Positions 39,668-51,101 of a stretch of 64,000 nucleotides of DNA are shown in pieces. The stretch spans positions 16,389 through 80,388 of the IMG/VR virus record IMGVR_UViG_3300035698_022762; one strand, 5' to 3'. The DNA comes from a virus. The translations under genes and the position numbers were made by a program. The notes under the pieces were generated by a model. The model had not been told where the DNA came from. It searched no databases and saw only the letters and a program-made list of their open reading frames with translations. Each line of letters begins with the position of its first letter. The stretch's first letter is position 1.

Positions 39668-39696
39668 TTGCGTTTTTACAAACAGTATGTTATAAT
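39668..39696 (+). promoter_or_regulatory. Sigma70-like promoter of the homing endonuclease/cas3 unit
   Basis: TTGCGT (39668-39673), a 17-bp spacer and TATAAT (39691-39696) are close to the bacterial housekeeping consensus. The predicted start is only about 8 bp before the ATG at 39711. With no terminator visible up to 44511, the unit could include both endonuclease genes and cas3. Confidence 0.65.
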
Positions 39697-39710
39697 ATTC
39701 GAATATTAAA

Positions 39711-40730
39711 ATGGAAGAAAGCTTAAAACAAAAAAACATAAAATTATTTCAAGAATGGCATGAAAAAAATAAGGAGTCACCTGAAAACATTTCTTGGTAT
39801 AGCTCTAAAAAGGTTTGGTGGAAATGTGATGCAGGGCATGAATGGGAAGCAAAGGTTTTCTCTCGTTTTAGAAAAAACAGTAAATGCCCATTTTGTTCTG
39901 GAAGACGGGCTTGTGAGGAAAATTCTTTAGGAAAAATAAATCCAGAATTGGTTTCGGAATGGCATGTTAAAAACATTAAAACTCCTTTTGATTATGTTTC
40001 TGGTAGTACTTTCAAGGCTTGGTGGAAATGTAAAAACAAACATGAATGGCAATCTGAAATCCGCAACAGAACTCAAAGAAAACATGGTTGCCCATTTTGT
40101 TCAAATATGTCTGTAGATGAGGACAATTGTGTTGAAAAAACACATAAACATCTTATGCATGAATGGCATTGCAATAATAAATACAAACCTAATGAATTAG
40201 TAGCAGGCAGTGCAAAAATAATTTTATGGCAGTGTTCTAAATGTAGTCATGAATGGTGTGCTAGAGTCGCTTCTAGAGCATTAGAAAAAAAGAACTGCCC
40301 TATATGTGCAAATTATATCAAAAGCATAACAATGTCCGAAAAGATTCTAAATGGATGGAACAGTTATAAAAATTCTTGTTTAACAGGGTATTTCTTTTCT
40401 GATAAAAATAACAAAAAAATATTCTTTAGAAGTTCTTATGAAAAAAAAGCCTTTGAAATTTTAGAAAATGATGATGAGGTTGCAAACTATAAAATAGAAC
40501 ATATAAAAATAAAATATAAACATGAAAACAAATATAGGTTTTACATTCCTGATATATTGGTGGAATACGTCAATGGGGAATCACAATTGATTGAAATTAA
40601 ACCTTTGAAAATGTTCAAAATTAAAGGTAAAAAGAAACTCATCTCTAAACTAAAGGCATTGTCAAAGTATAGTAAAGATAACAACATGAAGAAATGCTTA
40701 ATCTGGCATGAGAAACATTTAGGGATTTAA
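39711..40730 (+). CDS. Zinc-ribbon PD-(D/E)XK endonuclease, homing-type
   Basis: 339 residues. Three treble-clef or zinc-ribbon repeats of about 60 residues (WWKCDAGHEW...CPFCSG; WWKCKNKHEW...CPFCSN; LWQCSKCSHEW...CPICAN) fit the DUF4379-type DNA-binding module. The C-terminal 130 residues carry FFRSSYEKKAFEILE, YIPDILVEY and LIEIKPL, the E...PD...ExK pattern of Vsr/TnsA-like nucleases. Such proteins are free-standing phage homing endonucleases. It ends 1 bp before a second endonuclease gene and heads the segment leading into cas3. No clear Shine-Dalgarno. Confidence 0.7.
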   Translation: MEESLKQKNIKLFQEWHEKNKESPENISWYSSKKVWWKCDAGHEWEAKVFSRFRKNSKCPFCSGRRACEENSLGKINPELVSEWHVKNIKTPFDYVSGSTFKAWWKCKNKHEWQSEIRNRTQRKHGCPFCSNMSVDEDNCVEKTHKHLMHEWHCNNKYKPNELVAGSAKIILWQCSKCSHEWCARVASRALEKKNCPICANYIKSITMSEKILNGWNSYKNSCLTGYFFSDKNNKKIFFRSSYEKKAFEILENDDEVANYKIEHIKIKYKHENKYRFYIPDILVEYVNGESQLIEIKPLKMFKIKGKKKLISKLKALSKYSKDNNMKKCLIWHEKHLGI

Positions 40731-40731
40731 A

Positions 40732-41862
40732 ATGAAAAAATTAACCATAGATCAAGTTAAAATAGAATTAGGCAGGAAAGGGTGGCGAGTTTTAGATAAC
40801 GCCTATATCAACGCCCTGACGCCATTAAATGTAAAATGCGACAAAGGGCATGAAACAAAAATAACTATAAACAACTACAGAAAAGGACAGGGGTGCAAAT
40901 ACTGTAGTGGGAATGCTAAAAACACTTATGAATATGTGCAAAAATATTTTCAAGATGCAGAGTGCGAACTTTTAACATCAACATACAAAAACATTCATAG
41001 TGATTTACGCTTTAAGTGTTTTTGTGGCAGTGATAACACGACCACATTTTACAAATTTCAAAAAATAAAAATGTGCAAGAAATGTAACAAAGCAGTCAAA
41101 AAAGGAAGTGTGTCTCAATTAAAAAAAGAAATAAAACAATACGAAAATATAAATGTTGTATTATGCAATCCTTTTCATGCCATGAATAAAAATTATTTAA
41201 AAAAAATAAAAAAAGAAAATTCATTTTTTGTTTACCCACACGAATGGATAAAAAGGAAAAAACAATGGGAATCGCATTTTGAGTCAGCAGAAAAACAATT
41301 TTCTAAAAGGATATTTGCTCGAAAGTGTATTGTTAAAGAAGTCTCTAAAGAAAAAATCAAAAGCTTTTGTGATGAATATCACATACAAGGGAGCAATTCT
41401 TTGTCTATAAAAGGATGGGGAGTTTATCATGAAGATGTCCTATTAGGAATCTTGTCATTAGGGAAGCACCATAGACAAAATGGAGAATTGACACTTGACA
41501 GAATGTGTTTTAAGAGTAGAGTACAAGTTGTTGGTGGTGCAAACAGGCTTTTTTCAAAAGCAAAAAAATGGGCTGTAGCATCTGGTTATACTAAAATATT
41601 GAGTTTTAGCGACAACAGATATAGTGATGGGAACATTTATCCAATACTTGGATTCAAATTGGATAAAGAGTTATATCCAGATTACTTTTATTTAGAAGCA
41701 AAAAACATATTGAAATATAAAAGCAAACAATCTGAAAAGAAGTCCAATACGGGATGTCCTGAACACATTACTGAACATGAATGGGCAAAAGAACGTGGGT
41801 ATATTAGAATATGGGATGCAGGTAAAAAGAGATGGGTGGTGGATTTACAAAACTACACTTAG
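40732..41862 (+). CDS. Hef-like homing endonuclease
   Basis: 376 residues. The N-terminal part has two zinc-ribbon units (VKCDKGHETK...CKYCSG; KCFCGSDN...CKKC). The C-terminal part (about 195-375) has the order FARKCIVKEV, YHIQGSNS, GILSLGKHH, LTLDRMCF, VVGGANRLF, ILSFSDNRYSDGNIYPILGF and a final GYIRIWDAGKKRWV, a pattern I associate with Hef-like phage homing endonucleases. It lies 12 bp before cas3. The arrangement suggests a mobile intron-free HEG pair linked to the cas locus. Confidence 0.65.
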   Translation: MKKLTIDQVKIELGRKGWRVLDNAYINALTPLNVKCDKGHETKITINNYRKGQGCKYCSGNAKNTYEYVQKYFQDAECELLTSTYKNIHSDLRFKCFCGSDNTTTFYKFQKIKMCKKCNKAVKKGSVSQLKKEIKQYENINVVLCNPFHAMNKNYLKKIKKENSFFVYPHEWIKRKKQWESHFESAEKQFSKRIFARKCIVKEVSKEKIKSFCDEYHIQGSNSLSIKGWGVYHEDVLLGILSLGKHHRQNGELTLDRMCFKSRVQVVGGANRLFSKAKKWAVASGYTKILSFSDNRYSDGNIYPILGFKLDKELYPDYFYLEAKNILKYKSKQSEKKSNTGCPEHITEHEWAKERGYIRIWDAGKKRWVVDLQNYT

Positions 41863-41874
41863 GAAATTAAATCA

Positions 41875-49811: not shown

Positions 49812-50068
49812 TGATTTTAATTGTTAATAAAATAAGTGAAAAATTTCATGGAGAATTGAAAAATACTTTATTAGAAATAAAACACAATGTATTTGTAGGC
49901 AGTCCATCTAAAAGAATAAGAGAAATTATGTGGAGTAAGGTTGTAAAAAATGCTGAAAGTGCTGTAATGGCCAATTCAGACAAAAAACATATAAACAAAT
50001 ATGAAATAAATATACATGGAGACACAAATATCGTAGAAATAAATGGAAGATATTTTTCAAAATTATAA
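49808..50068 (+). CDS. cas2: CRISPR adaptation protein Cas2 (type I-E)
   Basis: 86 residues from the ATGA-coupled ATG. MILIVNKISEKFHGELKNTLLEI, VFVGSPSKRIREIMWSKVV and AVMANSDKKHINKYEINIHG align with the E. coli I-E Cas2 pattern (VGxxSxxIRExxW). Slightly short (E. coli 94) at the C-terminus. It is the last cas gene, 122 bp before the array. Confidence 0.93.
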   Translation: MMILIVNKISEKFHGELKNTLLEIKHNVFVGSPSKRIREIMWSKVVKNAESAVMANSDKKHINKYEINIHGDTNIVEINGRYFSKL

Positions 50069-50133
50069 AGTAAAAATGCTCAATCGACAAATACAGAAGC
50101 AATGTGTCGTTAAGTCTCTTTATTGTTGGTACT

Positions 50134-50169
50134 TACATCAAAAGCACAATATATTGTGCTTTTGATGTA
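50134..50169. repeat. Perfect 36-bp palindrome in the CRISPR leader
   Basis: The 18-bp arms (left starting TACATCAAAAGC, right ending GCTTTTGATGTA) are exactly complementary with no loop. It lies midway in the 122-bp leader between cas2 and the first repeat. Its right arm contains the -35 box of the predicted array promoter. It could be an operator, an architectural protein site or a cruciform. No T run follows, so it is not a normal terminator. Confidence 0.9.
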
Positions 50170-50182
50170 CTCATAGTACAAT
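50154..50182 (+). promoter_or_regulatory. Predicted pre-crRNA promoter in the leader
   Basis: TTGTGC (50154-50159), a 17-bp spacer and TACAAT (50177-50182) form a sigma70-like promoter. The predicted start is about 50190, right at the first repeat. The -35 box lies within the palindrome. Confidence 0.6.
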
Positions 50183-50190
50183 ATGATGGT

Positions 50191-51101
50191 TTGTTCCCCA
50201 TGTAATGGGGGTGTTCCCACAGACAAGATAACGAAGGTAATATTGCCTATTTGTTCCCCATGTAATGGGGGTGTTCCTATGGAAAGCCGATGCTGTCTTT
50301 CAAGTACTTGTTGTTCCCCATGTAATGGGGGTGTTCCTAGAGATAAAGAGGAAGGCATCTATACATCCAATTGTTCCCCATGTAATGGGGGTGTTCCTTT
50401 GCGGATGAGTACGTTAATCGCCCGTTTGATTGTTCCCCATGTAATGGGGGTGTTCCTCTGGTAAAAAAATGCCTCAGCATGGTTAGCTGTTGTTCCCCAT
50501 GTAATGGGGGTGTTCCTTGCCGAAATGGACAATGTAAAGAAGTGGGCGATTGTTCCCCATGTAATGGGGGTGTTCCTTGCACCTTGCTTGATACCATTGC
50601 CAGAAGTTATTGTTCCCCATGTAATGGGGGTGTTCCTTAAGCATGAGCTAAAAGATTTAGTCAGGGGCATTGTTCCCCATGTAATGGGGGTGTTCCTATC
50701 TATCCGCCCGAAACCCTTGAAAATGTCATTTGTTCCCCATGTAATGGGGGTGTTCCCATCCACGTCGTACCCCAAGGCAACAAGTGGGCTTGTTCCCCAT
50801 GTAATGGGGGTGTTCCCATCCACGTCGTACCCCAAGGCAACAAGTGGGCTTGTTCCCCATGTAATGGGGGTGTTCCTTATTCCAGCAGCATAAGCCGATT
50901 TCCAGATATTGTTCCCCATGTAATGGGGGTGTTCCTAGCTGTATGGCAGCCCTATCGCACCTATCATGTTGTTCCCCATGTAATGGGGGTGTTCCTCAAT
51001 CGCATCCGCCGCATTTATTCCCCATGTAATGGGGGTGTTCCTAATCTTATGCCAGTATTTCCCATTGTCATCGATTATTCCCCATGTAATGGGGGTACTG
51101 A
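50191..51101 (+). CRISPR. Type I-E CRISPR array, 16 repeats and 15 spacers
   Basis: The repeat reads TTGTTCCCCATG...ATGGGGGTGTTCC (27 invariant bases) with an internal CCCCAT/ATGGGG hairpin, in the same orientation as the E. coli repeat. Repeats start at 50191, 50251, 50311, 50371, 50430, 50490, 50550, 50610, 50670, 50730, 50790, 50850, 50909, 50969, 51015 and 51075. Period is 60 (59 twice, 46 once). The base after each repeat is T (12) or C (3). Spacers 10 and 11 are identical. Spacer 14 is only 19 nt. The last two repeats begin TTATTCC and the very last is degenerate after GGGGGT, marking the old, leader-distal end. Confidence 0.98.

What the first reader, a model, noticed from the sequence alone, without database searches (positions are those of the whole stretch)
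39668..51101. Complete, apparently functional type I-E CRISPR-Cas system in a T4-like phage
Eight cas genes in type I-E order, a leader and an array lie directly downstream of a gp23-type capsid gene. Active-site residues are intact in Cas1 (E141, H208, D221), Cas6e (Y23, H26) and Cas3 (H71-D72, Walker A/B). A full set with adaptation genes is unusual for a phage and implies use against competitors or host elements.
Basis: partly seen in the sequence, partly recalled or inferred. Interest (0 to 1): 0.92.

Follow-up and report, generated by a model that had tools for sequence, protein, structure and literature searches.

The report
Adaptive CRISPR inside a huge phage
A very large bacterial virus carries a complete, apparently working copy of a bacterial CRISPR immune system, including the parts that record new targets, and the DNA around it shows it was slotted in behind the capsid gene at a spot where mobile DNA-cutting genes repeatedly land; this offers a testable route by which viruses acquire CRISPR.

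Summary
All eight subtype I-E genes, a leader and a 16-repeat array lie at 41875-51096, with catalytic residues intact. Two corrections. The cas genes are not directly behind gp23: two homing-endonuclease-like genes (39711-41862) come between. The phage is not T4-like in the narrow sense: it belongs to a huge-phage clade (relatives up to 595 kb), and its morphogenesis module is collinear with theirs.

New findings: (1) A decayed second copy of the gp23 3' end lies just beyond the array (51135-51204), so 39505-51134 is one insert that restored the end of gp23. (2) That site is a hot spot: 37 of 65 relatives carry related endonuclease genes there, and L010 shows a fresh insert with a near-perfect duplicated gp23 tail. 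(3) A second huge phage of the clade (L176; capsid 78% identical) carries the sister I-E interference complex elsewhere in its genome, without cas1. Cas7 and Cas3 trees join the two phages at 100 support, far from the cellular I-E sampled.

Contamination or misassembly is very unlikely. No spacer target was found; spacers are 45% GC against 33% for the phage, so they look foreign. Counter-defence or rival exclusion remains inference.

The parts
38047..39504 (+). gp23-type major capsid gene; its 3' end is the insertion site
   Evidence: phrog_138 E 1.5e-77; 75-81% identical to huge-phage capsids
39529..39561 (+). intrinsic terminator behind gp23
   Evidence: 14-pair stem plus T run; 0.0 expected in shuffles
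39505..51134 (+). inserted block: endonuclease-like genes + cas operon + leader + array
   Evidence: bounded by the functional gp23 end and by a second, decayed copy of it
39711..40730 (+). homing-endonuclease-like protein: three DUF4379 treble clefs + TnsA-like PD-(D/E)XK nuclease (P280-D281...E295-x-K)
   Evidence: PF14311 4e-46, PF08722 1.7e-8, phrog_559/681
40732..41862 (+). homing-endonuclease-like partner: zinc-finger N-terminus + Mom-like/GNAT domain; lacks the PD-(D/E)XK domain of relatives
   Evidence: phrog_559 1e-56, phrog_3339 1.5e-43; alignment to 505-540-aa relatives behind gp23
41875..44511 (+). cas3 (HD nuclease-helicase)
   Evidence: PADLOC Cas3e 5e-148; HD and helicase motifs intact
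44572..46089 (+). cas8e/cse1 (carries a perfect in-frame 39-bp tandem duplication at 45799-45876)
   Evidence: PF09481 7e-48, TIGR02547
46086..46610 (+). cas11e/cse2
   Evidence: PF09485, TIGR02548
46623..47735 (+). cas7e/cse4
   Evidence: PF09344 2e-82, TIGR01869
47735..48379 (+). cas5e
   Evidence: TIGR01868 1.8e-30
48366..48941 (+). cas6e
   Evidence: TIGR01907 3.5e-23; Y23, H26
48945..49811 (+). cas1e
   Evidence: TIGR03638 7.5e-81; E141, H208, D218, D221 invariant
49799..50068 (+). cas2e
   Evidence: TIGR01873 5e-11, PF09707
50069..50190 (+). leader
   Evidence: sequence between cas2 and the first repeat
50134..50169 (.). perfect 36-bp palindrome in the leader, 21 bp before the first repeat
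   Evidence: folds at -21.4 kcal/mol, z -9.2
50191..51096 (+). CRISPR array, 16 repeats of 28 nt (TTGTTCCCCATGTAATGGGGGTGTTCCY), 15 spacers
   Evidence: repeat hairpin -8.8 kcal/mol
51135..51204 (+). decayed duplicate of the gp23 3' end, stop codon aligned
   Evidence: 71% over 70 nt; score 155 against 96 for the best shuffle; nearer to own gp23 than to any other compared

Best explanation
A genuine, intact subtype I-E adaptive CRISPR-Cas system belonging to a huge phage. Cas1-Cas2 integrate new spacers behind the leader, Cas6e cuts the array transcript into crRNAs, Cascade (Cas8e-11e-7e-5e-6e) finds matching DNA and Cas3 degrades it, during infection. It came into this genome as cargo beside homing-endonuclease-like genes: a break near the 3' end of gp23 was repaired from a donor that carried endonuclease genes, cas operon and array behind its own gp23 end, so the incoming end restored the capsid gene and the recipient's old end was left stranded beyond the array. 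The interference module belongs to a lineage so far seen only in this clade of huge phages; the second member lacks cas1. Likely use: destroying foreign DNA in the infected cell (satellites, plasmids, rival phages or host loci). SHOWN: gene content, intact residues, phage context, an insert bounded by two gp23 ends, hot spot, sister system. INFERRED: activity, endonuclease-driven entry, targets.
For: Gene identity, residues and array. Phage on both sides: about 56 kb on the left collinear with five or more huge phages; TPR protein and late sigma factor at 61939-63642 conserved on the right. One insert: gp23 tail duplicate. Hot spot: a P0004/P0005-like ORF within 400 nt of gp23 in 37 of 65 loci (19 of 41 clusters at 97%), against 2 elsewhere in about 1.77 Mb of relatives. 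Independent fresh case: L010 has a 1-kb insert with an ORF of possible PD-(D/E)XK type and a 37-nt tail duplicate with one mismatch and one gap; L036 has an exact 25-nt tail duplicate. Sister system: Cas3 586 bits to L176 against 289 to the best cell sampled, Cas8e 191/110, Cas7 302/174, Cas5 160/88; Cas7 and Cas3 pair at 100. Long residence: cas interference genes match phage codon use (r 0.98, GC3 0.27 vs 0.25). Spacers 45% GC; none of 5000 draws of 14 window 32-mers reached it. Precedent: in ICP1 the I-F system and the nuclease Odn alternate at one locus (PMC8263062), and nuclease genes mark exchange boundaries between phages (PMC10448857).
Against: No protospacer found, so activity and purpose are unproven. 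P0005 lacks the nuclease domain of its relatives. The gp23 remnant is 71% identical, so the event is old or donor and recipient differed, and no empty-site or donor phage was found. Cas6 does not join L176 more strongly than it joins some cells (103 vs 119 bits). The L176 system is not at gp23. The distal array end is degenerate (spacer of 18 nt, last repeat truncated).
Confidence: 0.68

Rival explanations
1. The system is real and phage-borne, but entered by ordinary (illegitimate or short-homology) recombination; the endonuclease-like genes are separate residents of the same hot spot and did not carry it.
For: P0005 has no recognisable nuclease domain; the sister system in L176 lies away from gp23 and has no adjoining endonuclease gene of this family.
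Against: One gp23-tail duplicate bounds endonuclease genes, cas operon and array together, and the same kind of duplicate bounds an endonuclease-like insert in L010.
Confidence: 0.22
2. The interference module was inherited from the ancestor of this huge-phage clade, moved to gp23 later, and lost from most relatives; L176's phage lost cas1/cas2.
For: Window and L176 Cas proteins are 31-44% identical, in the range of some shared core genes of the two phages; they are sisters.
Against: Cas7 absent from all 34 other records of the clade searched (many are fragments); the two loci are not syntenic.
Confidence: 0.3
3. A chimeric contig or host contamination: a bacterial cas locus joined to phage DNA.
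For: No read coverage was available; no other phage in the collections has a near-identical locus.
Against: gp23-derived sequence on both sides, codon use of the phage, phage genes right of the insert, sister system in a second phage contig of the clade.
Confidence: 0.03
4. The system no longer adapts or cuts and serves as a fixed guide bank, for example repressing host genes.
For: Duplicate and truncated spacers at the leader-distal side; many huge-phage systems are incomplete (PMC7162821).
Against: All catalytic residues and all eight open frames intact; leader-proximal repeats uniform, spacers 31-32 nt, unlike the irregular arrays of cas1-less L176.
Confidence: 0.1

Closest known systems
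Subtype I-E CRISPR-Cas (E. coli, Thermus, Streptococcus type)
   Same: All eight genes in order, leader on the cas2 side, 28-nt palindromic repeat, 32-nt spacers
   Different: Carried by a phage; Cas proteins only distantly related to the cellular relatives sampled (Cas1 at most 43%); perfect 36-bp palindrome in the leader
ICP1 phage type I-F CRISPR-Cas (Vibrio cholerae phage)
   Same: Phage-borne, complete with adaptation module; its locus holds a nuclease gene in other strains (PMC8263062, PMC11656645)
   Different: Different subtype; huge-phage clade; here endonuclease genes lie beside the cas genes, and a gp23-tail scar marks entry
Huge-phage CRISPR-Cas systems (Al-Shayeb 2020, PMC7162821)
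   Same: Huge phages, compact arrays
   Different: Those mostly lack Cas1/Cas2 and often interference genes; the held main text does not name I-E
I-E system of IMGVR_UViG_3300035698_018317 (L176)
   Same: Sister Cas3, Cas8e, Cas11, Cas7, Cas5 and related Cas6; capsid 78% identical; same clade
   Different: No cas1 in the 225-kb record and no cas2 beside the operon; two arrays of degenerate repeats; not next to gp23
Homing-endonuclease islands in phages (PMC10448857)
   Same: Nuclease genes with zinc-finger repeats flanking exchanged cargo near capsid genes
   Different: Cargo here is a whole CRISPR-Cas locus; nuclease type is PD-(D/E)XK, not T5orf172

Membership tests
Subtype I-E CRISPR-Cas | cas8e (cse1) and cas11e (cse2) signature genes | tested here: met
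   TIGR02547 and TIGR02548 above cut-off
Subtype I-E CRISPR-Cas | cas7e, cas5e, cas6e in order after cse2, cas3 upstream | tested here: met
Subtype I-E CRISPR-Cas | Cas1e-Cas2e adaptation pair with Cas1 catalytic residues | tested here: met
   TIGR03638, TIGR01873; E141/H208/D218/D221
Subtype I-E CRISPR-Cas | Cas3 HD nuclease and helicase motifs intact | tested here: met
Subtype I-E CRISPR-Cas | array with hairpin repeat of about 28-29 nt and 32-33-nt spacers next to cas2 | tested here: met
Subtype I-E CRISPR-Cas | crRNA processing, spacer acquisition, PAM-dependent cleavage | not testable with these tools
   needs expression
Phage-encoded CRISPR-Cas | locus lies in a phage genome, phage genes on both sides | tested here: met
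   gp23 remnant
Phage-encoded CRISPR-Cas | spacers match rival elements or host | tested here: inconclusive
   14 distinct spacers: no match in phages or plasmids; two tried in IMG/VR (1 and 10), none found
Homing-endonuclease island | endonuclease gene with catalytic motif in the insert | tested here: met
   P0004: zinc fingers + PD-(D/E)XK
Homing-endonuclease island | empty site cut by that endonuclease, filled site resistant | not testable with these tools
   site inferred from the duplicate only
Homing-endonuclease island | recurrent occupation of the site by related endonuclease genes | tested here: met
   37 of 65 loci

The most novel reading that the evidence does not exclude
Huge phages of this clade maintain their own lineage of subtype I-E CRISPR-Cas, passed between phages as cargo of homing endonucleases that land at the 3' end of the capsid gene and restore it; CRISPR in these phages is therefore mobile phage equipment, not a recent capture from a host.
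Probability: 0.4. Interest if true: 0.8.

Novelty: new variant of a known kind. Interest (0 to 1): 0.66.

Why it matters
How phages acquire CRISPR loci is open; a 2024 review says of ICP1 that it is unclear where, when and how the locus was captured (PMC11656645). This window gives a physical scar at the far end of a phage CRISPR insert, a repeatedly used insertion site with an independent fresh example, and a sister system to compare. It makes endonuclease-borne transfer of CRISPR between phages directly testable, and supplies a complete phage I-E system whose adaptation can be assayed.

Tried and rejected
Close Cas1 relatives in IMG/VR by single-protein scan: none. Exact repeat in IMG/VR and in GTDB contigs: none. 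Spacers against phages and plasmids by blastn: no match at E 10; spacers 1 and 10 with some positions left free, in IMG/VR: none; nucleotide and translated matches to fetched loci: nothing convincing, the peptide matches no better than shuffled spacers. L176 spacers in phages: best E 0.4 and 5, the second a 22/23 match in a baseplate hub of Xanthomonas phage XbC2; treated as chance. Other IMG/VR contigs with Cas1e or Cas7e (L089-L095, L177-L182): of the eight records tested for this capsid only L176's has it, and several of their Cas7 fall within cellular clades. MT835722 'Bacteriophage sp.' I-E groups with Bacillota in the Cas7 tree and is an unverified scaffold, probably bacterial. Host from Cas phylogeny: no placement possible, long stem. 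No structure was predicted: sequence evidence for all eight Cas proteins was decisive.
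Full report
WHAT IS THERE. The window is bases 16389-80388 of an 80,388-bp IMG/VR record. Eight open frames at 41875-50068 are cas3, cas8e, cas11e, cas7e, cas5e, cas6e, cas1e and cas2e by three independent libraries. The array has 16 repeats and 15 spacers. Repeats 1-14 differ only in the last base (C or T); the leader-distal end is degenerate, with an 18-nt spacer, two repeats with G changed to A, and a last repeat that breaks off. Spacers 10 and 11 are identical. The leader holds a perfect 36-bp palindrome, 50134-50169, which overlaps a promoter-like match; its function is unknown.

Two further genes stand between gp23 and cas3. 39711-40730 has three DUF4379 treble clefs and a C-terminal TnsA-like PD-(D/E)XK nuclease domain; 40732-41862 has a zinc-finger N-terminus and a Mom-like/GNAT domain that forms part of phage proteins annotated as homing or HNH endonucleases. 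In relatives the Mom-like and nuclease domains are one protein of 505-540 aa; here they are in two.

WHOSE GENOME. Terminase, portal, protease and capsid match the T4-type PHROG families, but the near relatives are huge phages: capsid 75-81% to IMG/VR contigs of up to 532 kb and 71% to LR756511 (595 kb). From the left end of the record to gp23 (about 56 kb) gene order is collinear with five or more of them. Between 39.5 and 61.9 kb almost nothing is shared apart from the endonuclease-like genes, the cas genes (L176's phage only) and transposon genes; then a TPR protein and a late-sigma-like gene are conserved again. So both sides are phage.

THE SCAR. A 70-nt stretch just after the array, 51135-51204, is 71% identical to the last 67 nt of gp23 plus 3 nt beyond, stop codon aligned. 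Against shuffled downstream sequence it scores 155, best shuffle 96. It is nearer to this phage's own gp23 (46 of 66) than to any of 44 relatives (next 41). The simplest reading is that the whole block 39505-51134 was inserted at the 3' end of gp23, with the incoming sequence completing the gene and the old end left behind. Whether it came as one event or in steps cannot be told.

A HOT SPOT. Of 65 relatives with at least 700 nt beyond gp23, 37 carry an ORF related to P0004 or P0005 starting within 400 nt (19 of 41 when loci are clustered at 97%). In about 1.77 Mb of large relatives only three such ORFs exist, one of them the one behind gp23. Tail duplicates recur: in L010 a 1-kb insert, with a 313-aa ORF on the minus strand that by eye has a PD-(D/E)XK-like stretch, is followed by a copy of the last 36 nt of gp23 with one mismatch and one inserted base, and L036 has an exact 25-nt duplicate. 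The set of loci was chosen by capsid similarity, not by neighbours.

A SISTER SYSTEM. No Cas7 was found in 34 other records of the clade (many are fragments). A profile scan of IMG/VR for Cas7 gave L176, on a 225-kb contig whose capsid is 78% identical. Its operon is cas3-array-cas8e-cas11-cas7-cas5-cas6-array; cas1 is absent from the whole record. Scores to L176 far exceed those to any of about 90 cellular or plasmid loci, and to the hits taken from 692 genomes of two phyla, for Cas3, Cas8e, Cas7 and Cas5 where these were covered. Trees of Cas7 and Cas3 pair the two at 100, with a long stem in the Cas7 tree. Caution: cellular rows were drawn by Cas1 similarity and from two phyla, so a nearer cellular lineage may exist unsampled. 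The L176 arrays have irregular spacers (32-36 nt) and variable repeats, as expected without adaptation genes; the window array is regular.

WHAT IT IS FOR. Spacers are 45% GC, the window 33%; none of 5000 samples of 14 window 32-mers reached the observed mean, so the spacers look to come from other DNA. No target was found in 50,697 phage or 72,556 plasmid records, and two spacers tested in IMG/VR gave none. The array therefore says 'foreign, higher GC', and no more. Interference with elements in the infected cell is the default reading from the intact Cas3 and the ICP1 precedent (PMC11656645, PMC8263062).

HOW UNUSUAL. In the phage record collection the Cas3 and Cas7 searches found only records that look bacterial, unverified or fragmentary. 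Al-Shayeb 2020 states that almost all huge-phage systems lack acquisition genes. Their 2022 survey, not held here, is known to me to report all six CRISPR types in phages, so I do not claim the first phage I-E. What appears new is the combination: complete I-E, a lineage so far seen only in these phages, and an insertion scar in an endonuclease hot spot at the capsid gene.

Noticed in passing
window 54493-60231 (-): IS607-like set: MerR/serine-recombinase TnpA (59593-60231) and TnpB (54493-55719), with a 1051-aa ResIII-type helicase and a 198-aa protein between them that match no PADLOC family; possibly a helicase cargo or unknown defence gene pair.
   Followed up: partly
window 50134-50169: Perfect 36-bp palindrome in the CRISPR leader, overlapping a promoter-like match; possible operator or regulator site.
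   Followed up: partly
L017:11556-13133, L038:11604-13130, L018:6356-7906: Proteins behind gp23 in relatives fuse a Mom-like (DNA-modification) GNAT domain to a TnsA-like PD-(D/E)XK nuclease: a possible modification-plus-cutting mobile endonuclease.
   Followed up: partly
window 45799-45876: Perfect in-frame 39-bp tandem duplication in the C-terminal part of cas8e, so probably recent.
   Followed up: no
L010:12406-12446: Near-perfect duplicate of the gp23 3' end and following bases behind a 1-kb insert: a recent insertion at the same site in a 532-kb phage.
   Followed up: yes
L176:7516-7926 and 12343-12934: Two arrays with degenerate repeats and 32-36-nt spacers around a cas1-less I-E operon in a huge phage.
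   Followed up: partly
window 16355-19486 (-) and 34480-36306 (+): Large proteins (1043 and 608 aa) without Pfam match; the second is conserved across the clade (37-45%), the first only in L176's phage (31%).
   Followed up: no
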